DNA of 64,000 bases from Arenicola marina (Eukaryota; Annelida; Polychaeta; Arenicolidae): assembly GCA_964019135.1 (NCBI GenBank), contig OZ025248.1, forward strand, positions 68,702,119-68,766,118, read 5' to 3'. This document shows positions 27,355-48,746 of the stretch, one piece after another (positions within the stretch are counted from its first letter, which is position 1; each line of letters begins with the position of its first letter). Made by a program: the position numbers and the translations under genes. The notes beneath the pieces are model-generated. The model was not told the DNA's origin and did no database searches. It saw only the letters and a list, made by a program, of their open reading frames with translations.

Positions 27355-27480
27355 CGGCAAGGGGCCGCCTCGATAGCTGAGTTAGAGCGCTCGCTTTGAG
27401 TGCTGTGGCCACCTAAGAGCCGAAAGCAGCGAACACACGGTCCGTTTTTTTGCATCCGTCTCCGCGTCCGCGTGCGTCGT
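27355..27480 (+). mobile_element. tRNA-derived SINE head (copy 1)
   Basis: An A-box region CCTCGATAGCTGAGTTAGAG followed by non-tRNA sequence (ACACACGGTCCG). The paralogous copy is at 58,073, so the insertion predates the MGST3 duplication. Confidence 0.5.
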
Positions 27481-28289
27481 CCGTCTTTTGCTAACACACG
27501 TGTTCGTCTTTTTGTCCGTCGCCCGGCCCACTTTTCTATGTGGAATCTGTTCTAGGTCCGAGCAGGCTAGTAAGAACATGGATTCTGGCAAAATCAAACT
27601 ACAGAGCGTCATGTCATTATTAGCATCACGGAATATACTGACACTGACTCTATTTGGCAACATTGCAATTATAGCAAAAACGACTTTGGAGGAAATTTAG
27701 CTAATTATTACCTAATTACTTAAAGGGAAATGCCGGGCCCATATCATTTACATTTCCAGTTTACCTATAGGGAATTAACTAAACATTACACACAATTTAA
27801 TTTTTTTAAATCATACATTAGTGAAGTTCCAAGCAGTTTTGCACGACCACCCAACTTGTCATGGGCACCCGCCTCAGCGCGCTGATGATGACGTCACCGG
27901 CGATGAAGCGACCAGTACGACTACTACCAACGGAAGGTACAATATCGAAGCGGTTTAATTAACTTTTTTTTACGCGGAGGGTACTTCCGAATGTTTACAA
28001 TATGGCGAAGCAAGAACAAGCTTCTGGCGAGTCGGACGAATAGAAGGGGCGGGGGCGAGGGGGGTGGGGGGGGGAGTGGAGTGTCCAATTTTGATTTGAC
28101 TTATGGTTCGCTAAGCGGCAGTCGATGGTGTAACTTGATACAACTATTGTCTTAGAAACGTACTGTCACTGAAGGGTGTATGGACAGGACGACCGTGCTA
28201 CCAGAACGGCCGTATGGGTTAGGGTGGGTGGGGTGGTGGGGATGGGTGGAGGGAGGAGAGGTGCGTGAAGCAGGGTCGACTCAAAGCAA

Positions 28290-29016: not shown

Positions 29017-29934
29017 TGGGACCTCTTCTGTTTCTAGTCTACATTAATGACTTAGCCAACGATCTTGAATGTAATATTAGACTTTTCGCTGATGATACCA
29101 CTATATTTGTTGCCACAGATGATTTATGTGAGGCACACGGTATGTTAATGCGAGACATCAAAAATTGAAGCGTGGGCCAAAAAGTGGTTTTTAGATTTTA
29201 ATGCAACTAAGACTAATGTCATGAACATTACGAATAAGCTCAACCTCGATCCTACGCAACTCAGTATGGGTGGAAATAGTCTTGCAAACGTATCAGAGCA
29301 CAAACACTTGGGTCTTAATATTGACTCCAAGCTTTCTTGGTCCCCGCATATCAATGAAATATACAGCAAATCTATGAGAAGAGTTGATATTCTGTCTAGA
29401 CTCAGTTTCAGACTTAGTCGTGGAACACTTGAAACAATGTATTTTTCTTTCATCAGACCTGTACTCGAATATGCATGTGTTGTGTGGGCCGGGTGTTCTC
29501 AGTATGAGTCTGACAAACTAGAATCGGTACAGATAAGGGCTGGACGCATTGTAAGTGGTGCAATCAAATGCGCAAGCCGCACTCAGGTGTACAAAGAGTT
29601 GGGTTGGGAAACCTTGTCACAAAGGAGGGACAGATTTAAACTCATTCTGTTTCACAAATTTTGTTATAACCAGGCACCTTCCTATGTGTGTAGCTTACTT
29701 CCTATGTCCGTGCTCGACCGCGCACAATATGGTTTACGTAGTGCTAGCCCACTTAATATTACGCAAATAAATACAAGGTAGTCAACATTTTACAAATCAT
29801 TTCTACCTAGCGCAATACGAATGTGGAACGAATTACCAGTCTCTTTACGCAGCTTACACGACCCAAAAGCGTTTAAAGTAGCAATTTTAAATATTCATAA
29901 AACGGTGTCCGGGAATGTAACTGATAACCGCAAA
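29017..29934 (+). pseudogene. 5'-truncated LINE, reverse transcriptase, first part
   Basis: Begins inside the RT domain: GPLLFLVYINDLAND, then the catalytic FADD box (LFADDTTIF), then WAKKWFLDFNATKT, HKHLGLNIDSKLSW, SFIRPVLEYACVVW and WNELPVSLRS. This is a CR1/L2-type non-LTR RT. A frameshift near 29,160 and a TAG at 29,779 make it inactive. The frame is broken at 29,934 by the giant palindromic element and resumes at 48,248. Confidence 0.85.
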
Positions 29935-29942
29935 TTGTATTA
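29935..29942. repeat. 8-bp target-site duplication, left
   Basis: TTGTATTA, identical to 48,240-48,247, inside the LINE codons for Leu-Tyr-Tyr. Confidence 0.9.
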
Positions 29943-30002
29943 GTAGTATAGAGCTGAGCTTTTAGCTACCCCCATGACCCCCTCACCCCCCCCCCCCCCC
30001 GT

Positions 30003-30310
30003 GGTCGCGCTCTAGCGCGACCGAAAATTTTGAAATATCGATTTGAAAATGCCGGTCACGAGTTAATGAGGTCATTAATTTTTGTCAAAAGTCTTTGTTT
30101 CCGTGCTATAGCACGGGGTATAATTAGCATAAATTACGATGTAAATAGCTAATTAAGCTGTCAACAAGGTTATTCATAATTGCTTGAAGTCTTTGTTTCC
30201 GCGTTATAGTACGGGGTATAAATAGTATAAATTAGTATGTAAATAGGTATATTCAACAAGGTTATTAATCATTGTTTGTCTATGTTCTCGTGCTATAGTA
30301 CGAGTGAATG
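30003..30310 (+). promoter_or_regulatory. Subterminal hairpin and three subterminal repeats (left)
   Basis: A hairpin GGTCGCGCT-CT-AGCGCGACC lies at 30,003-30,022. Similar direct repeats at about 30,091, 30,189 and 30,278 each carry a palindrome like CCGTGCTATAGCACGG followed by GGTATAA. The mirror is at 47,872-48,179. Subterminal palindromic repeats are usual transposase-binding sites, but no binder is known here. Confidence 0.6.
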
Positions 30311-30423
30311 AAGTTGGTTGAAGTCTTCAATCTGCGATCAAGTACTATTATGAATAGGTAATAGATAAACAAGTCATTGTGCTTTGATGAAACAGTAAAT
30401 CATTTAATCGCTATAGATATCGG

Positions 30424-30545
30424 TAGCCGACACCGCCATGTTGTGTCGGCTGCCGCCATGTTGTGTCGGCTGCCGCCATGTTGTGTCGGCTGCCGCCATG
30501 TTGTGTCGGCTGCCGCCATGTTGTGTCGGCTGCCGCCATGTTCGG
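30424..30545 (+). repeat. 20-bp tandem repeat with YY1-like motif, left arm
   Basis: About six copies of TGCCGCCATGTTGTGTCGGC. GCCGCCATGTTG matches the YY1/PHO consensus (GCCGCCATNTTG). The mirror array is at 47,637-47,757. Confidence 0.85.
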
Positions 30546-30559
30546 CTGCTATCGGATGT

Positions 30560-30715
30560 GCTCTGATAGGTAAGCTCAAGCGCCCGTGCGTCGTTCGAAC
30601 CCCACATGTACAAAGGTGTGCCAAGGATAAAGATCCTTCTTTTCTTTGCAAAGAATACGCGTTTACTCACGGATACCGGGCTCTTCTCTACGCTGTCCCT
30701 CCCCATTGTCACGAT
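30560..30715 (+). mobile_element. tRNA-derived SINE-like segment in the left arm
   Basis: TAAGCTCAAGCGCCCGTG is followed by the B box GTTCGAACCCC and GGATAAAGATCC. The mirror is at 47,466-47,620. Confidence 0.4.
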
Positions 30716-31423
30716 ATGACCTTCAAAGGTTAAAACGTCATAGGACTTAAACTAGCCAACGAATCAATGTAAACGAATCATGATCTAAAAAACATCTGGA
30801 TATGTTGCAAATAACCTGCTGTCCGTCCTGGTGGTTGATTGCTGGTAAGGCAATGACGGTAGACCCTCTGATGCAGTTACAAATAGGCGGGTGTTTCGGG
30901 AGAAACGCTAGTTCTCTCTACGCTGCATAGCACTTAAAAAGCGGGTACTGACTTATAGCTGCATCATTTTCAAGGTAATCATGGGTTAACCGGGTGTTTT
31001 CTAAAATCAAAAATCCGCTTCGTACAGACTAATATTTTGACTGTCACATGATACCATTTTAAGGAGACAGAAGCATATAAGGCGAGAAAACAGCTGATAT
31101 TAATGCGACCGGCGAAAGTAAGGACTTTCATTACGTAGCGTGAAAGTGGTCATTTTTCCGGTTTGCTGATGTTCCTTAGTGCGGAAATAATGATCGTGCT
31201 GGTGCCTATTTTGCTTAGATATATTAAAAAGCCAATTCAGGAATACGTTTTGTACAGAAAACATGACTTGGTACCAGATGTGTACCGATTATAACTTGTT
31301 ATGAAGCGATGATATGAACCGGTATACACTGTCTTTCCAATACGAGTCTGAGTGCACTCGAGTGACCTTGTTGCGTAGCAACCAGGAATGTCGAAAGGGA
31401 AGCCTAACATACAGGACTGTTAA

Positions 31424-31823
31424 AGTTGCATGTCGAGCTCTTTCCCGCCAAAACTAAAGAGGTCAAAATACTAATAAGAATTAGTCCTAGAATCATTCAA
31501 GACTTTTATTGTCTATACTCCACCCATGCCAGACTGACAAATAGTGTCTCTTAGCCTTGCCCGTGATATCAATTTACCACAAGTTTTCATTTTAGTGGTA
31601 AACGTCATCAGTTTGTGTGCTTCGCGATGCTTTGGTATAAGTAGCAGTACAGCGATCGAGTTCTATGGTGTCCCGGGATAGACACGTTTGCCACACCATA
31701 GCCGCAACGGCGATGTTTATCAGGTTTTTGAATTCATAGAATGAAACAATCGAGTTTTCTCCAAATTTTGATATAAATTTCGCCTGGGCTTAGTTTTGGG
31801 GGGAAAGAACTCGAAATGCAACT
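31424..31823. mobile_element. TTAA-flanked MITE, left outer block
   Basis: The inverted ends AGTTGCATGTCGAGCTCTTT and its near complement are bounded by TTAA on both sides. The inner block lacks it at the same place (GACTGTTAAACTGTTG). TTAA duplications are typical of piggyBac and Kolobok elements. Confidence 0.8.
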
Positions 31824-32544
31824 TTAAACTGTTCTCAATCTAGTGAAATATAAGCTCTGATTCCATTACGTAATGTAATACTTACGGGAAAGTTTATAGA
31901 AACATCTTGTGTGTTTGTTCTGTGAAAAACAATGCCATAAAATCATCATACCCCTGACAAAAGCAACGTTGAAGCCGGGTAGCTGAACCAACTCTATAGG
32001 CATGCATGGTAAACGCATGCGAGAATAGGTTTTCTAACGCGAACACGCAGTGTATATTTTTGAGGATAGATATCGCCTGGGGTATCTGGAACGGTCATTT
32101 TGTTTCAAAACAAGTAAACAACTAACTGTAAACGATCACGTATTGCTGGCGTTGAAGCACTTCGACGTGGCCCTTATTCCCACGGCGTCCATGTCCGATT
32201 GTAAAATGGCTAAATAAAGGTTCACATCGCAACATTAGTGAGATTTCGCATCACTTCAACATAAGGTCAAATTTATATGTGACTGAACCGGTGTCAAACG
32301 GAAGCGATTTGAAATAAAACAAAATCTTGCCAATGAGTACTGAGGTAAGTTGTCATATATAGCTTAGTATGTAGATCAACATGTTAGACTTTGGATGGTA
32401 CGTGCTTGACGGAACGAAATCTGATAGACCATTTGGCTGAATTTTTTAGCTGTAAATTAAGAAACTTTGCCTGTTGCTGAAGTCTTTTTATTTTCTTCTT
32501 GCAAGGCAGCGTTGCACTGGCACCCTGGCCGTACACATGATATC

Positions 32545-33308
32545 TTAACCATTGCTCTGGTGGATACCGTCAATGGAGTCGTAAGACACGTCACCGGTAT
32601 CTCCTGGGCAGAACTGGTCGTCGTTGCTGGAGTCGGCGTCCCTGTTGCCACAGATACCGTTCAGCTGACCGCTGTAGTTGTCGGCGGCGTCCACCGTGAT
32701 CATGTCGTTGACGCCCGTGTTGGCGCCACTTCCGGCCTCCTCGTAGAGGACGGTGAACCAGCAGCCGAGAGAGGGAACCTCGCCCTTCACAGAGAACACG
32801 CCGGCCTCGTCAGTGTCGAGGCAGAAGCTCCAGGCCTCGGGGAAAGGGTCAGACTCGTAGCAGCCTGTGGTGACGGGGGTTGGGTCAGCGTCACGACCCC
32901 GTACCTGCACCTCGCCCTGGGTCAGAGACACCCGGAAGTTCCTCTCGAAATTGGCGTCGTTCTTCTGGTGGATCCCGAATGCCGATCCAGACCATCCGAC
33001 CTGGGGTCCGGCTCCTTCTGGAGCGTCCTCTGTGTCCATTCGCACCTGGAACTTGCACTGGTCGTCATTCACCAGGGACTGGCTGGACAGTACTTGTTGT
33101 TGGTGTCCAACGCGTAGGTTGCGCCGTCATAACTGGTGACTGTGTTGGGGCCGGCCCACCCAGCCGTGCAGGGCAGACACTCACAGGTGACGTCACAGGC
33201 ACAGCTGCACGTGCAGTCGGCAGTTCAATCTCCAGTGACGTCAGAGCTGGTGCACGTGTCGCCGCCGTGGGCGACTAGGAAGAGAGCTGCGAGGATGAAG
33301 ATCTTCAT
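32545..33308 (-). pseudogene. VWD-like secreted protein, outer copy, left arm
   Basis: The signal peptide and VWD-like body align with the intact inner gene. However, GGA is changed to a TGA stop shortly after the signal peptide (GGAGATTGAACT on the coding strand), and a one-base loss (AAGTACTGTCC versus AAGTACCTGTTC) shifts the frame. The downstream 175 codons remain open to the normal stop region. TATATAAG upstream is kept. Confidence 0.75.
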
Positions 33309-33395
33309 CTTTCTGTGAATGTCTCTTCTTGTCCTGCTTAAACCAGGAATGTTCCTAACAGAGGAAAGCTGAACTTATATAGCTACCTCCATAGG

Positions 33396-34574
33396 GGGCG
33401 AATTGCACGATTGACAAACACTCATATCAAAAGAAAACTAGAACGCAAATATATTAAGCTACACGTAATGATATACATAAATATGTACCAGTTTCGTAAT
33501 TATCTCCTATAATATTATTTTGAATTGACGTTCCTGTCAACACGGCAGTCGGCCGCACAGAGAACTGATTTACATAACACGACATCTTCCGCTGCGTTGT
33601 AGCCACACGTGTGCCATTTGCTCAATGATGGATGAGGTTGTGTGCAAACAACCCAAAGGACGAGATACACATGGCGCGACAACAAGTGATCGATTGCAAG
33701 ATGCCGAATAATAAAGTATCTTAAGGTGTGAACGTTCTTGACACCGGCAGCGTAGGCCAAAACTTGTCACACAAATTTGCATTACATAGAGCACCCCGTA
33801 GCGAAGGTCTATTTGATCTCTAGGGACCGCCATTTTCTATATAATATATATATAAACGGCGTACAAATAAGAATACTGACGTTACTCCTTTTTCAATGGT
33901 GTTGCTTGCTGTTCACTCGCATCTGAGGATTTTAATCGCCAGGTGTTGAGGATGGTGTTCGGCTCTCAGTCACGAATGCAATATATCCCCTCGACAGTAG
34001 ATGTCTATGTGCAGCATTAAGCTCAAATGTCAATATTGCAATATCATAATTTCCAAACAGTGCTCATTTATGTAATTCTTCCTGAATTAGACAAACCCTG
34101 TCTCATTTTGATCACTTCCATGCATGCGTTTTGAGTGATTTTATGGAAAAAAATCTGAAATTTGTCAATGAAACACATTCTCCTTAAGCTTTGTTGAAGA
34201 AAGTATGACGCCGAAGTGGAGCAATTTGCGCAACATAGTGCAGGGTCAATATTTGGCATCTTCGTTGGATCGTTTCAATTTCTTGGCACGCCGTGTCAGT
34301 GTGCTCTATTCCGTTGTTGACAAATGACGTGATCCATCAGTGATCGGAAGGATCACTTGTGGATAGTATTAAGTGGGTGAGTTGCGATACACAAATACAG
34401 TGTCGGTTTACACAACTTTGCCAAGGATTGTCAAGAAAACGTCAATATATCTACCCATGATAATTATTGTTTCCCGAAGCGATTGATACATGTGGGTATT
34501 GGCAATTATGAAATCGGTGCGAAATCGTTTCAGACATTTTTTGGCGAATGTGATGTTGACTTCTCGTGTGACAT
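33396..34574. promoter_or_regulatory. 1.2-kb spacer between head-to-head VWD copies, left arm
   Basis: Lies between the TATA regions of the outer (minus) and inner (plus) copies, so it is a shared upstream region. No exon recognised. It includes a TATATATA stretch near 33,842-33,853. The mirror is 43,602-44,780. Confidence 0.5.
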
Positions 34575-34592
34575 GGTTGAAATGCAGGTAGT

Positions 34593-34599
34593 TATATAA
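34593..34599 (+). promoter_or_regulatory. TATA box of the inner VWD gene, left
   Basis: TATATAA about 77 bp before the ATG, conserved in the outer copies (CTATATAAG). The mirror is at 43,578-43,584. Confidence 0.6.
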
Positions 34600-34669
34600 G
34601 TCAATTGCTCGTCTGTTGAGGACACTCCTGATTTGAGCGGGACGAGTAGTGACAGCCAATCACAGAAAG

Positions 34670-35434
34670 ATGAAGCTCTTCATTCTCGCAGCTCTCTTCC
34701 TAGTCGCTCACGGCGGCGACACGTGCACCAGCACTGACGTCACTGGAGATGGAACTGCCGACTGCACGTGCAGCTGTGCCTGTGACGTCACATGTGAGAG
34801 TCTGCCCTGCACGGCTGGATGGGCCGGCCCCAACACAGTCACCAGTTATGACGGCGCAACCTACGCGTTGAACACCAACAACAAGTACCTGTTCAGCCAG
34901 TACCTGGTGAATGACGACCAGTGCAAATTCCAGGTGCGGGTGGACACAGAGGACGCTCCAGATGGATCCGGACCCCAGGTCGGATGGTCCGGAGTGGCCT
35001 TCGGGATCCACCAGAAGAACGACGCCAAGTTCGAGAGGAACTTCCGGGTGTCTCTGACCCAGGGCGAAGTGGAGGTCCGAGGTCGTGGCTATGACCCCAC
35101 CCCCGTCACCACAGGCTGCTTCGAGTCCGACCCTTTCCCCGAGGCATGGAGCTTCTGCGTCGACACTGACGAAGCCGGCGTGTTCTCTATAAAGGGCGAG
35201 GTGCCCTCTCTCGGCTGCTGGTTTACCGTCCTCTACGAGGAGGCCGGAAGTGGCGCCAACACTGGCGCCAACGACAGGATCACGGTGGACGCCAGCGACA
35301 ACTACAGCGGTCAGTTGAAAGGTATCTGTGGCAACAGGGACGCCGACTCCAGCAACGACGACCAGTTCTGCCCAGGAGGTACCGGTGACGTGTCTGACGA
35401 TTGCATCGACGGCGATCACCAGTACAATGGTTAA
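34670..35434 (+). CDS. Secreted VWD-domain-like protein, inner copy, left arm
   Basis: Intronless 254-codon frame from ATGAAGCTC (an upstream in-frame ATG seven codons earlier is less likely, as the signal peptide starts here). Residues 1-16 form a signal peptide (MKLFILAALFLVAHGG). Residues about 17-50 are Cys-rich (CTCSCACDVTCESLPC). The rest resembles a von Willebrand type D domain: GPNTVTSYDGATYAL at the start and LKGICGNRDADSSNDDQF near the end match the DG..Y and GICGN(x)3D(x)3DDF hallmarks. VWD domains occur in secreted multimeric or clotting and mucin-like proteins; a stand-alone short VWD protein of unknown role is the best call. It has its own TATA box and AATAAA (35,496). It is a passenger of the palindromic element. 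Confidence 0.7.
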   Translation: MKLFILAALFLVAHGGDTCTSTDVTGDGTADCTCSCACDVTCESLPCTAGWAGPNTVTSYDGATYALNTNNKYLFSQYLVNDDQCKFQVRVDTEDAPDGSGPQVGWSGVAFGIHQKNDAKFERNFRVSLTQGEVEVRGRGYDPTPVTTGCFESDPFPEAWSFCVDTDEAGVFSIKGEVPSLGCWFTVLYEEAGSGANTGANDRITVDASDNYSGQLKGICGNRDADSSNDDQFCPGGTGDVSDDCIDGDHQYNG

Positions 35435-35495
35435 CTACGATATCATGTTTCTGGTCAGGGTGCCATCGCAACGCTGCCTTGTAAGAAATCGACAA

Positions 35496-35501
35496 AATAA
35501 A
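35496..35501 (+). terminator. Polyadenylation signal of the inner VWD gene, left
   Basis: AATAAA 62 bp after the stop codon; the mirror is TTTATT at 42,675-42,680. Confidence 0.65.
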
Positions 35502-36783
35502 AGATTTTAGCAACAGGTGAAGTTAATTGTTAATTTACAGCAATTTTCAGCCAAATGGTCTGTCAGATTTCGTTTCGTCAAGCACGTAGCATCAAAAGTC
35601 TAACATGTTGACCTACTTATTATGCTATATATGACAATTTAGCTCAGTACTCATTGGCAAGATTTTGTTTCATTTCCAATCATTTTCGTTTGTCACCGAT
35701 TCAGCCGCATGTAGGTTTGACCTTGTGTTGATGTGATGCGAAATCTCACTACTGTTGTGGTATGAACATTTAGCCATTTAGCAATGCTTGACCGTTTACA
35801 GTCAGTCGTTTATTTTTTCCCCGGTGAGATGAAACTGTCCGACTCAAAACAAAATGAGCGTTCCAGATATCCCATGCGACATCTATCGTCAAAAATATAC
35901 ACTGCGGGTTTTGCGTTAGAAAACCGATTCTCGCTGGCATTTACCATGCATGCGTATGGAGTTAGGTACCCGGCTTCAACGTTGCTTTTGTCATGGGTAT
36001 GGTGATTATATGGCATTGTTATTCACAGAACAAACACACAAGACGTGTCTATAAAATTTCCTGTGAGTATTATATTACGTAATGGAATCAGAGCTTATAT
36101 TTCACTAGATTAACAACAGTTTAACAGTCCTATCTGTTAGGGTTCGCTTTCGACATTCCTGGTTGCTACTCAACAAGGTCACTCGAGTGCACTCAGATTC
36201 GTATTGGAATGACAGTGTATACCGGTCCATATCATCGCTTTATAACAAGTTATAATCGGTAATCATCTGGTACCAAGTTATGTATTTTGTACAAAACATA
36301 TTCCTGAATTAGGTTTTTAATATATCTAAGCAAAATAGACAAGAGCACGATCATTATTACCGCACTGCAGAACATCAGCAAACCGGAAAAATGACCGTTT
36401 TCATGCTACGTAGTGAAAGTCATTACTTTCGCCGGTTGACATTAATATCAGCTGTTTTCTCGGCTTATATGCTTCTGTCTTGTCTAGACAAGTCTTGTCT
36501 TCTGTCTATATTTCACAGCCCATGGCGGGAGTTATCTATGACTAATGTGTACCGCGGACATATCATTGAAAAGTGATCTTTGCCATTTTTCACCACACTT
36601 ACACTGTTTTAGTTCTGGTTCTGTCAATTCAATTCAAGTCATTTTCTAATATATGCGTAGAACATCTCAGATTGCAGAGTTATATTCGAAATCTCCTAAC
36701 ATTTACAAATGTGAGATAGAATCCGCCTTTTAACGCAGATTTGGGCTTATTATGGGTTTTTAGTTTACCTCTATCGCTCCTCA

Positions 36784-37689
36784 TTAGTGTATAAAAGGAA
36801 AAACGAAGCAAAGAACACGTGGTTACATAACAGATATGAAACACATATGCCACCTCAAATACTGATAACTGATAATTTATAGCACACTAATAATGCTATA
36901 AGTCACCCATAAAGTGACAAAACCAGAGGACACTAAATGGGTAGGTACTGGCATGATATAAAGTAAATGCAGCAGGTATGAACTAGTTTACTAAAATATA
37001 AATATACAGGTTGATTGCGGCGGGAAGGATATTTTACTCCGTTACATATAATATGTATATATTATATATTTAATGAGTGTAGGGTTACATTGTTACCTTG
37101 TTACGGTATGTGATACATGACAAGATGATACCCAATCCAGAAGTAACTATTGGCTATATCACGGATAAAGCTTGCGTAGTCAGCTTTTGATTATGAGTGT
37201 CATATAAATTAGGAGTACAGCTATCTTCATTGTAATGTTGTGTTGTTTCGACTTTTTATTCCACAATTAGAAAATCAAGTTAAATTTCTTTCTAATACTA
37301 ATGTCGAATAGGAAAGAACAAAATAACGCGTTAGATATATTAAATCATATTAGTAATCAGTCGATTATTTGATTGGAAGACTTTTAAATGCACACAATAA
37401 TTTACTTAGGAATTATATACATTGTTACAAAATCTTCGTGGGATAAGAGCATTACATCGATAGTCTGTGAGCAACGGATTCTCCACCGAGTTTGCGACCG
37501 GGCACATGAGCGATAATAGGGATCTCATGCCGTGTCATTGAACCGCCGTTCCGATTTCCAGGACCAGGTAAGTGATGTTCACTTTCACCATAAATTTTCG
37601 CCGAAGTATAAAACTGTGTTGAAACGCTGAGTAAAATGGTTGTCTTGTCTTTCAACAAGACCGCTACAGGCATGGTTGTCAGTGCTCAG
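36784..37689. other. Centre of the palindrome, AT-rich, nothing recognised
   Basis: No exon or element end seen. An AT-palindromic stretch lies near 37,040-37,070. Confidence 0.4.
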
Positions 37690-37823
37690 TCGGGTCAGAT
37701 GCTGCCTGGGAACACTACACCGGGATGATGCTAGGCCCCGAGATAACAGGGTGTCCAAGAGGCCTGGAGTACCTGACTCAAGTCGACCAGTTGCTATGCA
37801 AGCAAGTTGTTGAGATTCTGGAA
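37690..37823 (+). pseudogene. Phospholipid scramblase-like single exon
   Basis: The plus-strand frame encodes CPRGLEYLTQVDQLLCKQVV followed by EILE, closely resembling the PLSCR segment (PPGLEYLxQIDQLLVHQQVELLE). It ends at a possible donor GAA|GTGGGT. No other scramblase exon was found in the centre, so this is probably a captured gene fragment. Exact exon start is uncertain. Confidence 0.6.
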
Positions 37824-38394
37824 GTGGGTTATGTTATGTTGTGAAGAAAGGTATTTGTTACTCAATGGAGAACTCCATCAGAATCTTAAATAACAAACCA
37901 GCGTAGAAAATATCCAACGGTTAAAATCATGTTAATGTGTTTTTAATCTATGTGAAATGAAGTACTAAAAATGTGTTGATGTTTTGGGAATCAATGTTAA
38001 TATGTGTCTACATTGTCAAATGCGATCTTTGTTTGTTAATTAAGCAATAACAAAACGCTTACTTGCTACTATATACTGTTATTACGTTAGTGGTCGCGAG
38101 GGTAGAGTGAAACAATGCAACGCCATAAAAATTGAAGCTACAAGCTTCAGCCTATTCAGCCATCGTTGGCATAGAATGCAGCAACCGCTTGAAAGTGACG
38201 AACAGCTTGGGCCAACGCATCTTTTACGCAGCGGAAGAGTCGGACTTCTGCAGCCGGCAGTGTTGTGGAGCCGCTAGAGGCTTCGTCATGCAGATTCTCG
38301 GCAATCTTATCGCTAGATCGCAGTGGCATAGTCCACCAGATGGCGCCACAGTGATGCCGGGAACCTCCTTAAATCCGTAAAACAATGCACTTAA

Positions 38395-38526
38395 TATAGA
38401 GATAAATATGTGGCCCAGTAAGATACGATACGATAAGATAAGATAAGATAAAGTTTTATTTAACGTCGGTATGTAAAAGTCAACAATAAAGATTAGCACA
38501 AGCGCTATTGACTGACAATATGCAAT
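38395..38526. repeat. GATAA microsatellite and LINE-like tail
   Basis: GATACGATAAGATAAGATAA followed by AGTTTTATTTAACG, as at the 3' ends of some CR1/L2 elements. Confidence 0.45.
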
Positions 38527-38593
38527 TGTTACGATATGCAAGGGTGCGTTATGATGAACTGTCCGAGATTGTGTAGCACTCGTATCTTTGTTG

Positions 38594-39569
38594 TTGTTGG
38601 TGGTTGCATATTTACTATGGCAACTATCTTTTTACTATCAGGCTTGAGTCCATCCTTTGTGATCACATGGCCGTGAAAAGAAATCTCTGTCTTTTTCAGC
38701 TCAGTTTTCTTATTGTTGAGTCTGATGCCATGCTGTTTACACCTGTCAAGTAATTTCTTTATGTTTTCGTCATGGTCTTTTAGAGCACTATCCATGTCCT
38801 CACCGCTCCCACACACCAAAATGTCATCTGCTATGCAGAAGATCCCAGGGAGGTTTTCTAAGGCCACTTGTAATCTCTTTTGAAAGATCTCGCTGCTTAC
38901 AGCAAGTCCAAATGGTAGTCTCTTCCACCTGTACCTGCCAAAAGGTGTCTGAAATGTCGTCAGATAGCTAGATTCTTCATCAAGAATACAATGCTAGTAT
39001 CCGTTTCTCAGGTCAAAAGTTGAGAAAACTTTAGCTTTCCGAAGCTCGGGTAATATATCATCGAGAACCTTGAGGGGATGTAATTCTCTTCTAAGAGCCT
39101 TATTTAGGTCGTGTGGGTCTATACAGATTCTCAGTTCCCCACTCTTCTTCGTGCCTATCGCCATGCGACTAACCCACTCTGTAGGCTCGTCCACACGGGT
39201 GATCACATCTCTATTTTCTAATTTCTTCAGTGTTTCTTCCAGCTGTTTCTTCAGGCTCACTGGGACACGGGATGAAGAAATGGCAACAGGCTTGACTCCT
39301 TCAGTCACTGAGAGATGCACTGTGCCAGGCAGGGTACCTAATTCTTCAGTGAATACCTCCTCGTTGTCTTTCATAGCTTCCTTCATTCCCTGGATATTCT
39401 CATAGTGTACAGTAATCAAACCCATCTGTTCGCTGGCGCGCTTGCCCAGAAGTGGAACGAAGGGCTGATCCACCACCAGGAACTCTATGTTATATTTTCT
39501 TCGGGTCTTGACGTTGCGAATCACTGTGCGACACTTTCCAATTGGGGTTAATTCAGATGAATTCCACAT
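38594..39569 (-). pseudogene. Partial reverse transcriptase of the LTR element
   Basis: Contains protease end, LRICIDPHDLNKAL and VFSTFDLRNGY (RT fingers and the first catalytic Asp), then a TAG stop near 38,996 and a variant IADD catalytic box around 38,800. The reading is broken and the thumb is followed by the inverted LTR end. Confidence 0.75.
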
Positions 39570-39588
39570 CTTCAGTGAGGTATCACAT

Positions 39589-40578
39589 TTAATAAGCTCG
39601 GCATTTTTTTACCACATGTGCAGGAACTACATTCACACTGGCTCCGCTGTCTACTTGAAAGGATACCGTTGTACCTTCCACCTCCATGTCTGCCATGATG
39701 TCTTTGTTACCTCCTTGTGCACTAATCTTCAGTATCATTTCCACCTCTGAATCATCTGTTTCCTCTTCTCTCAAAGTATGAACTCTTCTTTTGGGTTTTA
39801 TATGACACTTCGACTTGCACTTGACTGCGAAGTGGTTGGTCAATCCACACTTCGAGCACCGTTTTCCATATGCAGGGCATTTTTCTTTACTCCACACATG
39901 TCTCTGTCCACAGAATTTACATTCTTTCAATTGATCGCGACTCATTTCCTTCTTTTTATACTTCTCATCTTGTTTGTGCTTTACCCACTGCACTGTTTCT
40001 TCTCCATCTTCTTTGAAGATATTCATCTGCTTCTTTGACATCTGGTGTGCGACACAAAACTGAATCGCTCTCTCCAGAGTCAATTCATCAGCTTTCAGAA
40101 GTTTCTCTCTTAAATGATCATCAGCACATCCAAATACAATTTGGTCTCTGATAAGTTTCTCTCGCTGACCTTCAAAGTTGCAGTCCTTGGATAGAATCTT
40201 CAGACGAGTGATAAAAGCGTCTAACAGTTCTCCTGGTCTCTGTTTACTTTCATGAAACTTGAACCGGGCTGCAATCTCATTTTTTCGTGGCGTGAAGTAT
40301 GTGTCAAATCTAAGCAATACTGAAGCGAGGACGTTGGCTTGGTTTGGTTGATCCACTTCAGGTATAGGAAACTCAAACGAGTTGTACAGCTCTAGCAAGT
40401 CATCACCACCACAGGTAAGTAAAATAGCCACTTTTTCTTCTTCTGTTTTACCTGCAGCTCCACTGGCTAACAGGTATAAGTTAAACTTCTGTTTAAACAA
40501 TTTCCAGCTATGCTCAGCATCGCCGGTCAGTGACATTTTACCTGGTGGGTTTATGCTAGACTGTGAAAATTGAGCCAT
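39589..40578 (-). pseudogene. gag-protease ORF of the LTR element (329 codons)
   Basis: Open frame with a capsid-like N-terminal part, two zinc-knuckle-like Cys/His clusters (CKFCGQRH... and CSKCGLTNHFAVKC) and the start of an aspartic protease with DSGAS (residues about 309-313). It ends within the protease, so the polyprotein is truncated relative to the family. Confidence 0.75.
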
Positions 40579-40923
40579 CTTCTATCTTCTTTTCTGCTTT
40601 ATTTAACTTCTTTCTTTATCTTCTTTCTCTTCTTTCTTTATCTTCTTTCTCTTCTTTCTTTATCTTCTCTATTCACCTCTCTTCATTCTTCCTGCTAATT
40701 TGACTTTACCACGCTGCCACCATGTTTCAATACGTCGTTTTAATCCGTTTATTGGTCACACGTGCCATCCACTCACCGGCATCTACATTCTACCGTCATG
40801 AACATTCAACAGCAACTTGTCATAACCCTCTGACCCCTGACCCAACCAATCGAAATCAACAAAGATACGAGTGCTACACAATCTCGGACAGTTCATCATA
40901 ACGCACCCTTGCATATCGTAACA

Positions 40924-41392
40924 GAGGGTACCGTAATAACCACTATTTATATGAACTAATTCACCCCACCATATTAACCACTTATTTGTCTACGCCTTGC
41001 AGAACATGATGTTCTTCTCCAAGAAATGAAGGATGGCCCTTCATGCGGCACCCCCAGGTTGAGGAGTCACTGACTAGAGCAGACATCATGATGTGGCTGA
41101 ACCACGGCACCCATCAGACAGGTGTGCAAGAGGCATAACGCTCAGAGGATACAGGTCTTGAAAGAAGAAGACATGAACCAAAATGACGAATGTAGCCTTC
41201 TCATCGAGTATATTTGGGCTCCAAGCTAATGACCGTTTTGGATGTGTTTGAACGAAAGAACCTGACAATGACATATTGTAATAAGGGGAATTGTTAGTTG
41301 TCCTCCTTTACCGGAATATGTGAATATGTGGATAATATTGAGCGCTGTAATAGTTTGTACAGTCGTTAGGAATGGCGTATATATATATCGTT
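40924..41392. other. Centre of the palindrome, right part, nothing recognised
   Basis: No recognised exon or element. A TATATATAT run is near 41,379-41,388. Confidence 0.4.
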
Positions 41393-42741
41393 TGAGGAGC
41401 GATAGAGGTAAACTAAAAACCCATAATAAGCCCAAATCTGCGTTAAAAGGCGGATTCTATCTCACATTTGTAAATGTTAGGAGATTTCGAATATAACTCT
41501 GCAATCTGAGATGTTCTACGCATATATTAGAAAATGACTTGAATTGAATTGACAGAACCAGAACTAAAACAGTGTAAGTGTGGTGAAAAATGGCAAAGAT
41601 CACTTTTCAATGATATGTCCGCGGTACACATTAGTCATAGATAACTCCCGCCATGGGCTGTGAAATATAGACAGAAGACAAGACTTGTCTAGACAAGACA
41701 GAAGCATATAAGCCGAGAAAACAGCTGATATTAATGTCAACCGGCGAAAGTAATGACTTTCACTACGTAGCATGAAAACGGTCATTTTTCCGGTTTGCTG
41801 ATGTTCTGCAGTGCGGAAATAATGATCGTGCTCTTGTCTATTTTGCTTAGATATATTAAAAACCTAATTCAGGAATATGTTTTGTACAAAATACATAACT
41901 TGGTACCAGATGATTACCGATTATAACTTGTTATAAAGCGATGATATGGACCGGTATACACTGTCATTCCAATACGAATCTGAGTGCACTCGAGTGACCT
42001 TGTTGAGTAGCAACCAGGAATGTCGAAAGCGAACCCTAACAGATAGGACTGTTAAACTGTTGTTAATCTAGTGAAATATAAGCTCTGATTCCATTACGTA
42101 ATATAATACTCACAGGAAATTTTATAGACACGTCATGTGTGTTTGTTCTGTGAATAACAATGCCATATAATCACCATACCCATGACAAAAGCAACGTTGA
42201 AGCCGGGTACCTAACTCCATACGCATGCATGGTAAATGCCAGCGAGAATCGGTTTTCTAACGCAAAACCAGCAGTGTATATTTTTGACGATAGATGTCGC
42301 ATGGGATATCTGGAACGCTCATTTTGTTTTGAGTCGGACAGTTTCATCTCACCGGGGAAAAAATAAACGACTGACTGTAAACGGTCAAGCATTGCTAAAT
42401 GGCTAAATGTTCATACCACAACAGTAGTGAGATTTCGCATCACATCAACACAAGGTCAAACCTATATGCGGCTGAATCGGTGACAAACGAAAATGATTGG
42501 AAATGAAACAAAATCTTGCCAATGAGTACTGAGCTAAATTGTCATATATAGCATAATAAGTAGGTCAACATGTTAGACTTTTGATGCTACGTGCTTGACG
42601 AAACGAAATCTGACAGACCATTTGGCTGAAAATTGCTGTAAATTAACAATTAACTTCACCTGTTGCTAAAATCTTTTATTTTGTCGATTTCTTACAAGGC
42701 AGCGTTGCGATGGCACCCTGACCAGAAACATGATATCGTAG

Positions 42742-43506
42742 TTAACCATTGTACTGGTGATCGCCGTCGATGCAATCGTCAGACACGTCACCGGTACCTC
42801 CTGGGCAGAACTGGTCGTCGTTGCTGGAGTCGGCGTCCCTGTTGCCACAGATACCTTTCAACTGACCGCTGTAGTTGTCGCTGGCGTCCACCGTGATCCT
42901 GTCGTTGGCGCCAGTGTTGGCGCCACTTCCGGCCTCCTCGTAGAGGACGGTAAACCAGCAGCCGAGAGAGGGCACCTCGCCCTTTATAGAGAACACGCCG
43001 GCTTCGTCAGTGTCGACGCAGAAGCTCCATGCCTCGGGGAAAGGGTCGGACTCGAAGCAGCCTGTGGTGACGGGGGTGGGGTCATAGCCACGACCTCGGA
43101 CCTCCACTTCGCCCTGGGTCAGAGACACCCGGAAGTTCCTCTCGAACTTGGCGTCGTTCTTCTGGTGGATCCCGAAGGCCACTCCGGACCATCCGACCTG
43201 GGGTCCGGATCCATCTGGAGCGTCCTCTGTGTCCACCCGCACCTGGAATTTGCACTGGTCGTCATTCACCAGGTACTGGCTGAACAGGTACTTGTTGTTG
43301 GTGTTCAACGCGTAGGTTGCGCCGTCATAACTGGTGACTGTGTTGGGGCCGGCCCATCCAGCCGTGCAGGGCAGACTCTCACATGTGACGTCACAGGCAC
43401 AGCTGCACGTGCAGTCGGCAGTTCCATCTCCAGTGACGTCAGTGCTGGTGCACGTGTCGCCGCCGTGAGCGACTAGGAAGAGAGCTGCGAGAATGAAGAG
43501 CTTCAT
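42742..43506 (-). CDS. Secreted VWD-domain-like protein, inner copy, right arm
   Basis: Mirror of the left inner gene with an identical 254-residue translation: signal peptide, Cys-rich segment, then VWD-like body with GICGN near the C-terminus. The shared TATA (43,578-43,584) and polyadenylation signal (42,675-42,680) make it a second potentially active copy. Identity over the whole frame, while the outer pair has begun to diverge, points to arm-to-arm conversion or selection. Confidence 0.7.
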   Translation of the reverse strand: MKLFILAALFLVAHGGDTCTSTDVTGDGTADCTCSCACDVTCESLPCTAGWAGPNTVTSYDGATYALNTNNKYLFSQYLVNDDQCKFQVRVDTEDAPDGSGPQVGWSGVAFGIHQKNDAKFERNFRVSLTQGEVEVRGRGYDPTPVTTGCFESDPFPEAWSFCVDTDEAGVFSIKGEVPSLGCWFTVLYEEAGSGANTGANDRITVDASDNYSGQLKGICGNRDADSSNDDQFCPGGTGDVSDDCIDGDHQYNG

Positions 43507-44873
43507 CTTTCTGTGATTGGCTGTCACTACTCGTCCCGCTCAAATCAGGAGTGTCCTCAACAGACGAGCAATTGACTTATATAACTACCTGCATTTCAAC
43601 CATGTCACACGAGAAGTCAACATCACATTCGCCAAAATGTCTGAAACGATTTCGCACCGATTTCATAATTGCCAATACCCACATGTATCAATCGCTTCGG
43701 GAAACAATAATTATCATGGGTAGATATATTGACGTTTTCTTGACAATCCTTGGCAAAGTTGTGTAAACCGACACTGTATTTGTGTATCGCAACTCACCCA
43801 CTTAATACTATCCACAAGTGATCCTTCCGATCACTGATGGATCACGTCATTTGTCAACAACGGAATAGAGCACACTGACACGGCGTGCCAAGAAATTGAA
43901 ACGATCCAACGAAGATGCCAAATATTGACCCTGCACTATGTTGCACAAATTTATATCTTGCTCCACTTCGGCGTCATACTTTCTTCAACACAGCTTAAGG
44001 AGAATGTGTTTCATTGACAAATTTCAGATTTTTTTCCATAAAATCACTCAAAACGCATGCATGGAAGTGATCAAAATGAGACAGGGTTTGTCTAATTCAG
44101 GAAGAATTACATAAATGAGCACTGTTTGGAAATTATGATATTGCAATATTGACATTTGAGCTTAATGCTGCACATAGACATCTACTGTCGAGGGGATATA
44201 TTGCATTCGTGACTGAGAGCCGAACACCATCCTCAACACCTGGCGATTAAAATCCTCAGATGCGAGTGAACAGCAAGCAACACCATTGAAAAAGGAGTAA
44301 CGTCAGTATTCTTATTTGTACGCCGTTTATATATATATTATATAGAAAATGGCGGTCCCTAGAGATCAAATAGACCTTCGCTACGGGGTGCTCTATGTAA
44401 TGCAAATTTGTGTGACAAGTTTTGGCCTACGCTGCCGGTGTCAAGAACGTTCACACCTTAAGATACTTTATTATTCGGCATCTTGCAATCGATCACTTGT
44501 TGTCGCGCCATGTGTATCTCGTCCTTTGGGTTGTTTGCACACAACCTCATCCATCATTGAGCAAATGGCACACGTGTGGCTACAACGCAGCGGAAGATGT
44601 CGTGTTATGTAAATCAGTTCTCTGTGCGGCCGACTGCCGTGTTGACAGGAACGTCAATTCAAAATAATATTATAGGAGATAATTACGAAACTGGTACATA
44701 TTTATGTATATCATTACGTTTAGCTTAATATATTTGCGTTCTAGTTTTCTTCTGATATGAGTGTTTGTCAATCGTGCAATTCGCCCCCTATGGAGGTAGC
44801 TATATAAGTTAAGCTTTCCTCTGTTAGGAACATTCCTGGTTTAAGCAGGACAAGAAGAGACATTCACAGAAAG

Positions 44874-45637
44874 ATGAAGATCTTCATCCTCGCAGCTCTC
44901 TTCGTAGTCGCCCACGGCGGCGACACGTGCACCAGCTCTGACGTCACTGGAGATTGAACTGCCGACTGCACGTGCAGCTGTGCCTGTGACGTCACCTGTG
45001 AGTGTCTGCCCTGCACGGCTGGGTGGGCCGGCCCCAACACAGTCACCAGTTATGACGGCGCAATCTACGCGTTGGACACCAACAACAAGTACTGTCCAGC
45101 CAGTCCCTGGTGAATGACGACCAGTGCAAGTTCCAGGTGCGAATGGACACAGAGGACGCTCCAGATGAATCCGGACCCCAGGTCGGATGGTCTGGATCGG
45201 CATTCGGGATCCACCAGAAGAACGACGCCAATTTCGAGAGGAACTTCCGGGTGTCTCTGACCCAGGGCGAGGTGCAGGTACGGGGTCGTGACGCTGACCC
45301 AACCCCCGTCACCACAGGCTCCTACGAGTCTGACCCTTTCCCCGAGGCCTGGAGCTTCTGCCTCGACACTGACGAGGCCGGCGTGTTCTCTGTGAAGGGC
45401 GAGGTTCCCTCTCTCGGCTGCTGGTTCACCGTCCTCTACGAGGAGGCCGGAAGTGGCGCCAACACGGGCGTCAACGACATGATCACGGTGGACGCCGCCG
45501 ACAACTACAGCGGTCAGCTGAACGGTATCTGTGGCAACAGGGACGCCGACTCCAGCAACGACGACCAGTTCTGCCCAGGAGATACCGGTGACGTGTCTTA
45601 CGACTCCATTGACGGTATCCACCAGAGCAATGGTTAG
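44874..45637 (+). pseudogene. VWD-like secreted protein, outer copy, right arm
   Basis: Carries the same premature TGA (GGAGATTGAACT) and the same one-base deletion (AAGTACTGTCC) as the left outer copy. The lesions therefore predate duplication of the arms. It is open from 45,110 to TAG at 45,635. Confidence 0.75.
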
Positions 45638-46358
45638 GATATCATGTGTACGGCCAGGGTGCCAGTGCAACGCTGCCTTGCAAGAAGAAAATAAAAAGAC
45701 TTCAGCAACAGGCAAAGTTTCTTAATTTACAGCTAAAAAATTCAGCCAAATGGTCTGTCAGATTTCGTTCCGTCAAGCACGTACCATCCAAAGTCTAACA
45801 TGTTGATCTACATACTAAGCTATATATGACAACTTACCTCAGTACTCATTGGCAAGATTTTGTTTTATTTCAAATCGCTTCCGTTTGACACCGGTTCAGT
45901 CACATATAAATTTGACCTTATGTTGAAGTGATGCGAAATCTCACTAATGTTGCGATGTGAACCTTTATTTAGCCATTTTACAATCGGACATGGACGCCGT
46001 GGGAATAAGGGCCACGTCGAAGTGCTTCAACGCCAGCAATACGTGATCGTTTACAGTTAGTTGTTTACTTGTTTTGAAACAAAATGACCGTTCCAGATAC
46101 CCCAGGCGATATCTATCCTCAAAAATATACACTGCGTGTTCGCGTTAGAAAACCTATTCTCGCATGCGTTTACCATGCATGCCTATAGAGTTGGTTCAGC
46201 TACCCGGCTTCAACGTTGCTTTTGTCAGGGGTATGATGATTTTATGGCATTGTTTTTCACAGAACAAACACACAAGATGTTTCTATAAACTTTCCCGTAA
46301 GTATTACATTACGTAATGGAATCAGAGCTTATATTTCACTAGATTGAGAACAGTTTAA

Positions 46359-46759
46359 AGTTGCATTTCGAGTTCTTTCCCCCCAAAACTAAGCCCAGGC
46401 GAAATTTATATCCAAATTTGCAGAAAACTCGATTGTTTCATTCTATGAATTCAAAAACCTGATAAACATCGCCGTTGCGGCTATGGTGTGGCAAACGTGT
46501 CTATCCCGGGACACCATAGAACTCGATCGCTGTACTGCTACTTATACCAAAGCATCGCGAAGCACACAAACTGATGACGTTTACCACTAAAATGAAAACT
46601 TGTGGTAAATTGATATCACGGGCAAGGCTAAGAGACACTATTTGGCAGTCTGGCATGGGTGGAGTATAGACAATAAAAGTCTTGAATGATTCTAGGACTA
46701 ATTCTTATTAGTATTTTGACCTCTTTAGTTTTGGCGGGAAAGAGCTCGACATGCAACTT
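46359..46759. mobile_element. TTAA-flanked MITE, right outer block
   Basis: Mirror copy of 31,424-31,823 with TTAA at 46,355 and 46,760. It was present before the arms were duplicated. Confidence 0.8.
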
Positions 46760-47636
46760 TAACAGTCCTGTATGTTAGGCTTCCCTTTCGACATTCCTGG
46801 TTGCTACGCAACAAGGTCACTCGAGTGCACTCAGACTCGTATTGGAAAGACAGTGTATACCGGTTCATATCATCGCTTCATAACAAGTTATAATCGGTAC
46901 ACATCTGGTACCAAGTTATGTTTTCTGTACAAAACGTATTCCTGAATTGGCTTTTTAATATATCTAAGCAAAATAGGCACCAGCACGATCATTATTTCCG
47001 CACTAAGGAACATCAGCAAACCGGAAAAATGACCACTTTCACGCTACGTAATGAAAGTCCTTACTTTCGCCGGTCGCATTAATATCAGCTGTTTTCTCGC
47101 CTTATATGCTTCTGTCTCCTTAAAATGGTATCATGTGACAGTCAAAATATTAGTCTGTACGAAGCGGATTTTTGATTTTAGAAAACACCCGGTTAACCCA
47201 TGATTACCTTGAAAATGATGCAGCTATAAGTCAGTACCCGCTTTTTAAGTGCTATGCAGCGTAGAGAGAACTAGCGTTTCTCCCGAAACACCCGCCTATT
47301 TGTAACTGCATCAGAGGGTCTACCGTCATTGCCTTACCAGCAATCAACCACCAGGACGGACAGCAGGTTATTTGCAACATATCCAGACGTTTTTTAGATC
47401 ATGATACGTTTACATTGATTCGTTGGCTAGTTTAAGTCCTATGACGTTTTAACCTTTGAAGGTCATATCGTGACAATGGGGAGGGACAGCGTAGAGAAGA
47501 GCCCGGTATCCGTGAGTAAACGCGTATTCTTTGCAAAGAAAAGAAGGATCCTTATCCTTGGCACACCTTTGTACATGTGGGGTTCGAACGACGCACGGGC
47601 GCTTGAGCTTACCTATCAGAGCACATCCGATAGCAG

Positions 47637-47757
47637 CCGAACATGGCGGCAGCCGACACAACATGGCGGCAGCCGACACAACATGGCGGCAGCCGACACA
47701 ACATGGCGGCAGCCGACACAACATGGCGGCAGCCGACACAACATGGCGGTGTCGGCT
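47637..47757 (-). repeat. 20-bp tandem repeat with YY1-like motif, right arm
   Basis: Reverse complement of the left array, with ACATGGCGGCAGCCGACACA repeated. Confidence 0.85.
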
Positions 47758-48239
47758 ACCGATATCTATAGCGATTAAATGATTTACTGTTTCATCAAAG
47801 CACAATGACTTGTTCATCTATTACCTATTCATAATAGTACTTGATCGCAGATTGAAGACTTCAACCAACTTCATTCACTCGTACTATAGCACGAGAACAT
47901 AGACAAACAATGATTAATAACCTTGTTGAATATACCTATTTACATACTAATTTATACTATTTATACCCCGTACTATAACGCGGAAACAAAGACTTCAAGC
48001 AATTATGAATAACCTTGTTGACAGCTTAATTAGCTATTTACATCGTAATTTATGCTAATTATACCCCGTGCTATAGCACGGAAACAAAGACTTTTGACAA
48101 AAATTAATGACCTCATTAACTCGTGACCGGCATTTTCAAATCGATATTTCAAAATTTTCGGTCGCGCTAGAGCGCGACCACAGGGGGGGGGGGGGGTGAG
48201 GGGGTCATGGGGGTAGCTAAAAGCTCAGCTCTATACTAC

Positions 48240-48247
48240 TTGTATTA
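48240..48247. repeat. 8-bp target-site duplication, right
   Basis: TTGTATTA directly after the right terminus of the palindromic element; the LINE frame continues from it. Confidence 0.9.
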
Positions 48248-48746
48248 CTTTGGAAACAGAAGAGTCAATGTATTGCACGCGCGTATTCGCATGAACTGTA
48301 GCGCACTGAAATCTCACTTGTTTAACATGAATCTTGTAGACAGCCCGAGTTGTCGCTGCGGAGCCGAGAACGAGGACTGCGTTCATTTTTTCTTCGGGTG
48401 CCCACGCTATACGAACTTTAGAGATATTTTATTTCGCAAAATCCATGTTCTATCCTCAGTGTCAATTGGCATCATTCTTTTTGGTAATCCGTCTCTATCA
48501 ATGGACGATAACCGTTGTATATTTCAAGCAGTTCACGACTTCATTGTAGCCTCCAAACGTTTCCCTTAAATATCACGTATCTTAATGTTATGCCTGAATG
48601 TATTAATTATCGAATTTCCACTACATTGTGGTGTACGCAACTGTTATGTATATATGTATGTATGAGCAATTGATTCAAGTTCAGCAAGAGGAATTCACAT
48701 AGACAGTGTGCCTGTTTTCCAATTGCCAATAAAATATGTTTAAACT
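48248..48746 (+). pseudogene. LINE reverse transcriptase, C-terminal part and 3' UTR
   Basis: Continues the LINE frame (YFGNRRVNVLHARIRMNCSA, then a CRCGAENEDCVHFFFGCPRY Cys/His cluster) to TAA near 48,567, followed by AATAAAATATG and the 151-bp duplication. Joined to 29,934 through one copy of TTGTATTA, the frame reads through. Confidence 0.85.

What the first reader, a model, noticed from the sequence alone, without database searches (positions are those of the whole stretch)
29943..48239. 18.3-kb giant palindromic element inserted in a LINE with an 8-bp duplication
Two inverted arms of about 6.84 kb, exact terminal matches and TTGTATTA on both sides show a mobile insertion rather than a simple inverted duplication. 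The host LINE frame (ending NRKLYY, continuing FGNRRVN) closes perfectly when the element and one 8-bp copy are removed. Arms this long, with host-like genes inside, are far outside normal DNA transposon architecture. It may be a new foldback-type, cargo-carrying element.
Basis: partly seen in the sequence, partly recalled or inferred. Interest (0 to 1): 0.92.

Follow-up and report, generated by a model that had tools for sequence, protein, structure and literature searches.

The report
Palindromic gene-carrying Polinton (Maverick) derivative
A giant mirror-image piece of DNA, ending in the tips of a virus-like jumping element (a Polinton) but carrying copies of a host gene inside, has inserted here, and related mirror-image elements are repeated across the same genome.

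Summary
The palindrome is real: element 29942-48240, arms about 6.84 kb with 26 substitutions between them, around a 4.6 kb centre. It is a precise insertion: all 40 scored LINE copies align across the join left by removing it. The 8-bp duplication is a misreading. The ends are AGTAGT...ACTACT with a 6-bp duplication (TGTATT), the Polinton/Maverick signature. The outer 481 bp match the ends of resident Polintons that encode PolB, an rve integrase with chromodomain and an ATPase-like protein. Inside 481 bp each arm is host-like DNA with an open VWD gene and a broken VWD copy. The window type is single copy. A second giant-palindrome type (arms about 6.3 kb) was seen at 17 loci; its two inner arms are sisters in 4 of 4 elements tested. 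Polinton-type pairs and type-B palindromes have nearly equal median lengths (15.76 and 15.78 kb); the window element without its retrotransposon is 15.90 kb. Best reading: non-autonomous Polinton satellites, made palindromic by fold-back of a protein-primed strand, with host-gene capture here, moved by Polinton enzymes. Identity is strong; the formation mechanism is inferred. New variant of a known kind.

The parts
29936..29941 (+). left copy of the 6-bp target duplication TGTATT
48241..48246 (+). right copy of the 6-bp target duplication TGTATT
29942..36783 (+). left inverted arm
41393..48240 (-). right inverted arm, mirror of the left
29942..30422 (+). Polinton-derived terminal 481 bp, starts AGTAGT
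   Evidence: 480 bases matched in full in 17 of 20 fetched loci at 95.7-99.2%; L014, L025 and L028 match 271, 302 and 399 bases
47760..48240 (-). Polinton-derived terminal 481 bp, ends ACTACT
30433..30542 (+). 20-bp tandem repeat, 5.5 copies, beginning 11 bp inside the Polinton/host boundary (mirror 47640-47749)
   Evidence: boundary read
31065..33392 (+). first half of an older nested inverted repeat inside the left arm (pairs with 34582-36480, three blocks at 88-91%)
34582..36480 (-). second half of the older nested inverted repeat
31420..31827 (.). 408-bp dispersed repeat inside the nested repeat
   Evidence: 96-97% copies on many contigs
34670..35434 (+). open single-exon gene, 254 aa, hydrophobic start (by eye) and VWD domain; TATATAAG at 34593, AATAAA at 35496
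   Evidence: Pfam PF00094 2.8e-07; coordinates
42742..43506 (-). identical VWD gene in the right arm
32548..33311 (-). broken VWD gene copy in the left arm (frame interrupted)
44871..45637 (+). broken VWD gene copy in the right arm (start placed by mirror image; open part 45056-45637)
36784..41392 (+). non-palindromic centre; outside the retrotransposon no other copy was found
38527..40923 (-). truncated LTR retrotransposon; gag/protease-like ORF (Pfam hits below cut-off), RT-like ORFs by eye; LTR about 40723-40923; best copies elsewhere 98-99%
29149..29781 (+). open stretch of the interrupted host LINE, left side
48247..48569 (+). host LINE frame, right side

Best explanation
It is a non-autonomous Polinton/Maverick derivative. 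Shown: its ends, its 6-bp duplication and the outer 481 bp of both arms are those of resident Polintons that encode a polymerase, an integrase and an ATPase-like protein, while none of ten tested Polinton ORFs is found in it. Inferred: a protein-primed strand that began at one Polinton tip ran or switched into host DNA with VWD genes. Its 3' end then folded back and copied itself to the tip, giving a hairpin with one open end. The next round of replication through the hairpin gave a duplex palindrome with a Polinton tip at both ends and the loop as the unique centre. Polinton enzymes supplied in trans replicated and integrated it. Later snap-back rounds would re-copy one arm from the other, explaining why arms of one element resemble each other most.
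For: Ends AGTAGT//ACTACT and exact 6-bp duplications in 6 of 8 elements, as published for vertebrate Mavericks (PMC8097293, passages). Terminal 481 bp shared with Polintons. Core genes in L013/L014: rve 1.1e-12 with Chromo 3e-7, DNA_pol_B_2 1.2e-6, ATPase_2 3e-4 (below cut-off). Precise empty site. A 413-bp element with about 44-bp inverted ends and its own duplication ACATCC shows that elements with little more than tips move. Type-B palindromes at 17 loci, so palindromes multiply as such. Inner arms of one element are sisters in 4 of 4 elements (support 95/91, 100/99, 96/90, and one identical pair); 24 sites unite only partner arms and no site unites only same-side arms. Polinton/host boundary with an 8-bp shared word CGCCATGT. 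Nearly equal lengths: median 15,758 bp in 15 Polinton-type pairs, 15,777 in 11 B palindromes, 15,902 for the window element without retrotransposon.
Against: No donor locus joining arm to centre was found; the nearest host VWD copy is 90% identical. Arm sisterhood could come from gene conversion after insertion. One B palindrome, C12:36.09, has two different end types. In the outer 480 bp no partner pairing reaches full support (5 of 8 pair, window 83/87), and at 490-1120 bp one of four B elements and two of three Polintons do not pair. The window type is a single copy, so its own further mobility is not shown. Equal length rests on three structural classes only. Two of eight elements lack a direct duplication; their flanks are inverted.
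Confidence: 0.66

Rival explanations
1. A Polinton derivative, but made palindromic by chromosomal repair: a break next to a Polinton tip beside VWD genes folded back or fused with its sister, giving an inverted duplication in the chromosome, which integrase later mobilised. Arm similarity is kept by gene conversion between arms.
For: Fold-back repair making inverted duplications is documented in yeast (PMC10622511, passages). The arm holds an older inverted repeat that could promote folding. At C3:19.86 the inverted repeat runs about 1 kb into the flanks, to the edge of what was fetched, so chromosomal inverted duplication may occur at these elements.
Against: Would need at least two independent events (types B and C) that both ended near 16 kb. 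It does not by itself supply a free tip at both ends.
Confidence: 0.22
2. A new foldback or cut-and-paste DNA transposon with 8-bp duplications (hAT, P or TU-like).
For: Long inverted arms; an exact 8-bp match at this locus and in 3 of 8 elements in all.
Against: 6-bp duplication exact in 6 of 8; ends and terminal 481 bp belong to Polintons; no transposase found among ten ORFs of the element given to Pfam (five, five; other ORFs not tested).
Confidence: 0.03
3. Assembly artefact: one arm misassembled as an inverted copy.
For: Palindromes are hard to assemble; C3:19.86 has inverted flanks.
Against: Arms differ at 26 sites and by an 8-base gap; the centre is unique; a precise duplication flanks the element; other palindromes at 17 loci, with own flanks where fetched.
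Confidence: 0.02

Closest known systems
Polinton/Maverick elements (polintoviruses)
   Same: Ends (AGT)2//(ACT)2, 6-bp duplication, about 16 kb, shared terminal sequence with gene-bearing copies in this genome.
   Different: Arms 6.3-6.84 kb instead of 46-1,447 bp (intact vertebrate Mavericks, PMC8097293, passages); the window element has none of ten tested Polinton ORFs and carries VWD genes twice.
Adenovirus 12 symmetric recombinant (SYREC); recalled, not found in the held library
   Same: Viral tip on both ends of a palindrome made of host DNA, in a protein-primed linear genome.
   Different: SYREC was virion DNA from cell culture (recalled); this is integrated in an assembled genome.
Foldback-type elements: TU and Foldback (recalled), Galileo (abstract start in listing)
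   Same: Long inverted terminal arms with variable centres.
   Different: Other superfamilies and duplication lengths (recalled); no link by sequence was tested.
Teratorn (PMC6431247, passages)
   Same: Virus-transposon fusion with long inverted repeats.
   Different: piggyBac-like plus herpesvirus, 41-182 kb, 18-bp terminal repeats.

Membership tests
Polinton/Maverick (as non-autonomous derivative) | 6-bp target duplication | tested here: met
   TGTATT at window; exact in 6 of 8 elements, also ACATCC at a 413-bp element
Polinton/Maverick (as non-autonomous derivative) | End motif (AGT)2//(ACT)2 | tested here: met
   motif from PMC8097293
Polinton/Maverick (as non-autonomous derivative) | Terminal sequence shared with gene-bearing family members | tested here: met
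   480 bases in full in 17 of 20 loci at 95.7-99.2%; PolB, rve+Chromo, ATPase-like ORFs in L013/L014
Polinton/Maverick (autonomous) | Own PolB, integrase, ATPase, protease | tested here: not met
   tblastn of ten ORFs from resident Polintons gave no match in the window element at E 1e-3
Polinton/Maverick (resident gene-bearing copies) | Packaging ATPase | tested here: inconclusive
   ATPase_2 3e-4, below its cut-off; no NCBIfam match
Polinton/Maverick (resident gene-bearing copies) | Adenovirus-type protease | tested here: inconclusive
   Peptidase_C5 E 0.0057, below cut-off; PDB match Cysteine protease S273R E 0.023
Polinton/Maverick (resident gene-bearing copies) | Double jelly-roll capsid protein | tested here: inconclusive
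   436-aa ORF resembles it by recall only; no Pfam or PDB match; structure tool switched off
Cut-and-paste foldback element with 8-bp duplication | Exact 8-bp duplication across copies | tested here: not met
   3 of 8
SYREC-type symmetric recombinant | Formed from one viral tip plus host DNA by strand snap-back | not testable with these tools
   Structure fits; the formation step needs replication intermediates or a donor locus

The most novel reading that the evidence does not exclude
Polintons in this animal support a class of satellite genomes that are giant palindromes: any host DNA joined to one viral tip is doubled by snap-back into a symmetric, replicable genome held near 16 kb by capsid packaging. 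The window copy would then be a packaged gene-transfer particle genome carrying an open secreted VWD gene in two copies.
Probability: 0.25. Interest if true: 0.87.

Novelty: new variant of a known kind. Interest (0 to 1): 0.64.

Why it matters
It gives a concrete route by which virus-like elements of animals can pick up whole host genes and carry them as symmetric genomes. It shows non-autonomous palindromic Polintons as a multi-copy class. The nearly equal length of Polintons and of palindromes with other contents makes the open question whether Polintons are packaged testable from genome sequence.

Tried and rejected
Rejected: the 8-bp foldback reading, assembly artefact. Looked for and not found: a match of the window centre to eleven held Polinton/type-B loci, a donor locus for the arms above 90%, another copy of the centre outside the retrotransposon; these searches score only the best 40 candidates. 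Led nowhere: PHROGs on four type-B ORFs (only a PC4-like regulator at 2.5e-8), NCBIfam on six Polinton ORFs (IS481, IS3, IS21 and IS630 transposase models below cut-off for the integrase), PDB search with the capsid-like ORF and the VWD protein, phage collection with the integrase, IMG/VR with the capsid-like ORF, Pfam on eight ORFs, five of them from the window centre and inner arm. The outer 480 bp carry too little signal to resolve partner arms. I probed 40 further ends (39 of the 48 unpaired ones and one paired) at 700-849 bp inside the tip: 33 match Polinton or type-B sequence and 7 do not. The seven may be truncated copies, nested insertions or further captures and were not resolved. Paper searches were seen as listings only, often a part of the hits: (15 of 44; 0; 15 of 40; 14 of 15; 10 of 10; 5 of 5; 13 of 13; 12 of 29; 1 of 1), 78 (15 of 27). 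None of the listed titles or abstract beginnings speaks of a palindromic Polinton; unlisted hits and papers outside the library were not seen. Papers read in passages only: PMC4028283, PMC8097293, PMC6431247, PMC10622511. Kapitonov and Jurka 2006 is not held.
Full report
Observation. The window holds an 18,299-bp insertion, 29942-48240, made of two inverted arms (29942-36783 and 41393-48240) around a 4,609-bp centre. The arms align over 6,850 columns at 99.5%, with 26 substitutions (12 transitions, 14 transversions) and 10 gap columns. Removing the element and one duplicate restores a LINE frame. All 40 LINE copies scored out of 139 candidates align across the restored site at 95-99% (38 cover all 300 bases, the other two 7-300 and 1-299). 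This is a precise insertion.

Duplication length. The element itself starts with A and ends with T, so the duplicate is TGTATT. The other elements decide it: for the window and seven other fetched pairs, a 6-bp duplicate next to AGTAGT...ACTACT is exact in 6 of 8 and the 8-bp reading in 3 of 8. The two failures (C3:19.86 and C3:43.85) have inverted flanks, the second within a minisatellite. A 413-bp mini element on C17 also has a 6-bp duplicate, ACATCC.

What family. The outer 480 bases of the left arm match in full in 17 of 20 fetched loci, at 95.7-99.2%; L014, L025 and L028 match only 271 (90%), 302 and 399 bases. Three of the seven fetched pairs (L009/L010, L013/L014, L021/L022) and L025 are gene-bearing. 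Pfam on ORFs of L013/L014 gives DNA_pol_B_2 (1.2e-6), rve integrase (1.1e-12) with a chromodomain (3e-7), ATPase_2 (3e-4, below its cut-off) and Peptidase_C5 (0.0057, below its cut-off). A PC4 protein (2.1e-15) was found in the type-B arm L019, and the same ORF is in L010, L013 and L022. I read these as Polintons/Mavericks. Intact vertebrate Mavericks have (AGT)2//(ACT)2 as the commonest ends, 6-bp duplications, terminal repeats of 46-1,447 bp and a size of 16,862 +/- 1,678 bp (PMC8097293, passages). The window element has none of ten tested Polinton ORFs, so it is non-autonomous.

What it carries. Inside 481 bp the arms leave Polinton sequence. In Polintons the boundary word ATAT is followed at once by CGCCATGT; in the window the same eight bases CGCCATGT follow a little further in, at the start of a 20-bp tandem repeat (repeat), a likely microhomology. 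The rest of the arm is single copy as a whole among the places scored. It contains an older nested inverted repeat (31065-33392 against 34582-36480, three blocks at 88-91%), a 408-bp dispersed repeat, an open 254-aa VWD gene (34670-35434, identical in the other arm) and a broken VWD copy. VWD relatives lie on C8:43.98 (90% at DNA level, itself split between two frames), in a cluster at C8:44.09-44.13 Mb (86-88%) and at C3:22.29 Mb (83-84%); by coordinates none is within 40 kb of any of the 124 listed Polinton ends. Against the C8 copy at 44.10 Mb the open gene has dS 0.236 and dN 0.060 over 250 codons; this shows constraint between them but not on which branch. The centre holds a truncated retrotransposon, 38527-40923, whose best copies elsewhere are 98-99% identical; no other copy of the rest of the centre was found.

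The wider family. Two end patterns give 60 and 64 ends, with none for the backward control. Of these, 76 form 38 convergent pairs under 40 kb and 48 are unpaired. I class the 38 pairs thus: 15 Polinton type with core-gene sequence (13 by integrase; C7:41.39 and C2:1.51 by 250-bp probes); 11 type-B palindromes seen on both sides (C3:19.86, C12:19.34, C3:56.83, C7:36.05 by sequence; C20:29.75, C12:17.43, C3:6.60 by arm hits; C8:36.11, C12:36.09, C7:10.08, C6:41.76 by 250-bp probes); the window; 2 single-arm forms (C7:40.43; C1:63.96); 3 with one B arm among the scored hits (C10:32.26, C10:41.32, C13:20.75); one hybrid with a B arm on one side and PolB on the other (C17:9.64); one with a B arm on one side and unmatched DNA on the other (C5:2.31); the 413-bp element; and 3 unclassed (C14:26.74, C19:29.81, C7:38.65). 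Six further loci show both B arms without a full listed pair of ends (C19:22.41, C11:15.54, C11:22.70, C8:6.24, C6:42.76, C3:60.45), making 17 B palindromes. B arm hits were 40 scored of 184 candidates and integrase hits 40 of 112, so counts are lower bounds. A B arm is about 3.0 kb of the PC4 end of a Polinton (95.8% to L010) plus about 3.2 kb not found in the Polinton stretches held. The centres of L015, L017 and L026, and L023, hold a 72-76-residue piece of integrase.

Length. In 24 of 38 pairs the length is 14.9-16.7 kb. The median is 15,758 bp (range 12,811-28,197) for the 15 Polinton-type pairs and 15,777 bp (14,958-16,361) for the 11 B palindromes; the window element without its retrotransposon is 15,902 bp. 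B copies share length by descent, so this is three structural classes, not many independent cases. A constrained size has been proposed for vertebrate Mavericks (PMC8097293).

Arms evolve together. In nine inner B arms (3.17 kb, four complete elements plus one single arm), 24 sites unite the two arms of one element only, no site unites only same-side arms of different elements, and two sites conflict with element-wise grouping. In a tree the partner arms are sisters in 4 of 4 elements (support 95/91, 100/99 and 96/90; the fourth pair is identical). Nearer the tips the signal is weaker: at 490-1120 bp three of four B elements pair (99/96, 89/93, 100/99), C3:19.86 does not, and of three Polintons one pairs, weakly; in the first 480-500 bp five of eight pair, window included (83/87), none with full support.

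Mechanism. Shown: Polinton tips, precise insertion, symmetry, lack of own core genes, further palindromes as a repeated class. Inferred: symmetric doubling by snap-back of a protein-primed strand from one tip, then replication and integration in trans. This predicts a unique loop at the centre, arms identical at birth, two tips from one, and arms that track each other; the structure and the inner-arm trees fit. It resembles the adenovirus 12 symmetric recombinant, which I recall and could not find in the held papers. The main rival is chromosomal fold-back repair (PMC10622511, passages) followed by mobilisation and gene conversion. No donor locus was found, so the first step stays open.

Verdict. 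A real, precise, mobile giant palindrome; a non-autonomous Polinton derivative with captured host-like genes; a new variant of a known kind. The organism was not identified here.

Noticed in passing
L011/L012, C3:19857563-19875262: The inverted repeat runs about 1 kb beyond the element into both flanks, to the edge of what was fetched, so no direct duplication exists: a chromosomal inverted duplication or a fold-back assembly.
   Followed up: partly
C12:36093945-36109721: A type-B palindrome whose two tips belong to different end types, a sign of recombination between subfamilies.
   Followed up: partly
L039, C17:29090363-29090775: A 413-bp miniature element with Polinton tips and a 6-bp duplication ACATCC.
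   Followed up: yes
C17:9641455-9657226: Hybrid element: type-B arm on one side, Polinton PolB side on the other (two 250-bp probes).
   Followed up: partly
C6:9864140, 9955243, 10035958: Three Polinton ends 81-91 kb apart followed by the same non-Polinton sequence, probably a large segmental repeat.
   Followed up: no
C12:5100301/5100549, C3:43870596/43870962, C4:20045443/20045857: Pairs of ends in the same orientation 248-414 bp apart, as if tips had been duplicated in tandem.
   Followed up: no
L014:5101-5700, also L021 and L025: Polintons here carry an extra ORF of about 200 aa with a hydrophobic start and LRR-like look (by eye; no convincing Pfam match).
   Followed up: partly
window 4196-8762, 9976-12169, 12654-17583: Long tandem arrays with periods 41, 49 and 30 bp.
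   Followed up: no
window 25984-26435 and 55244-57080: The same 53-54-bp tandem repeat unit occurs on both sides of the element.
   Followed up: no
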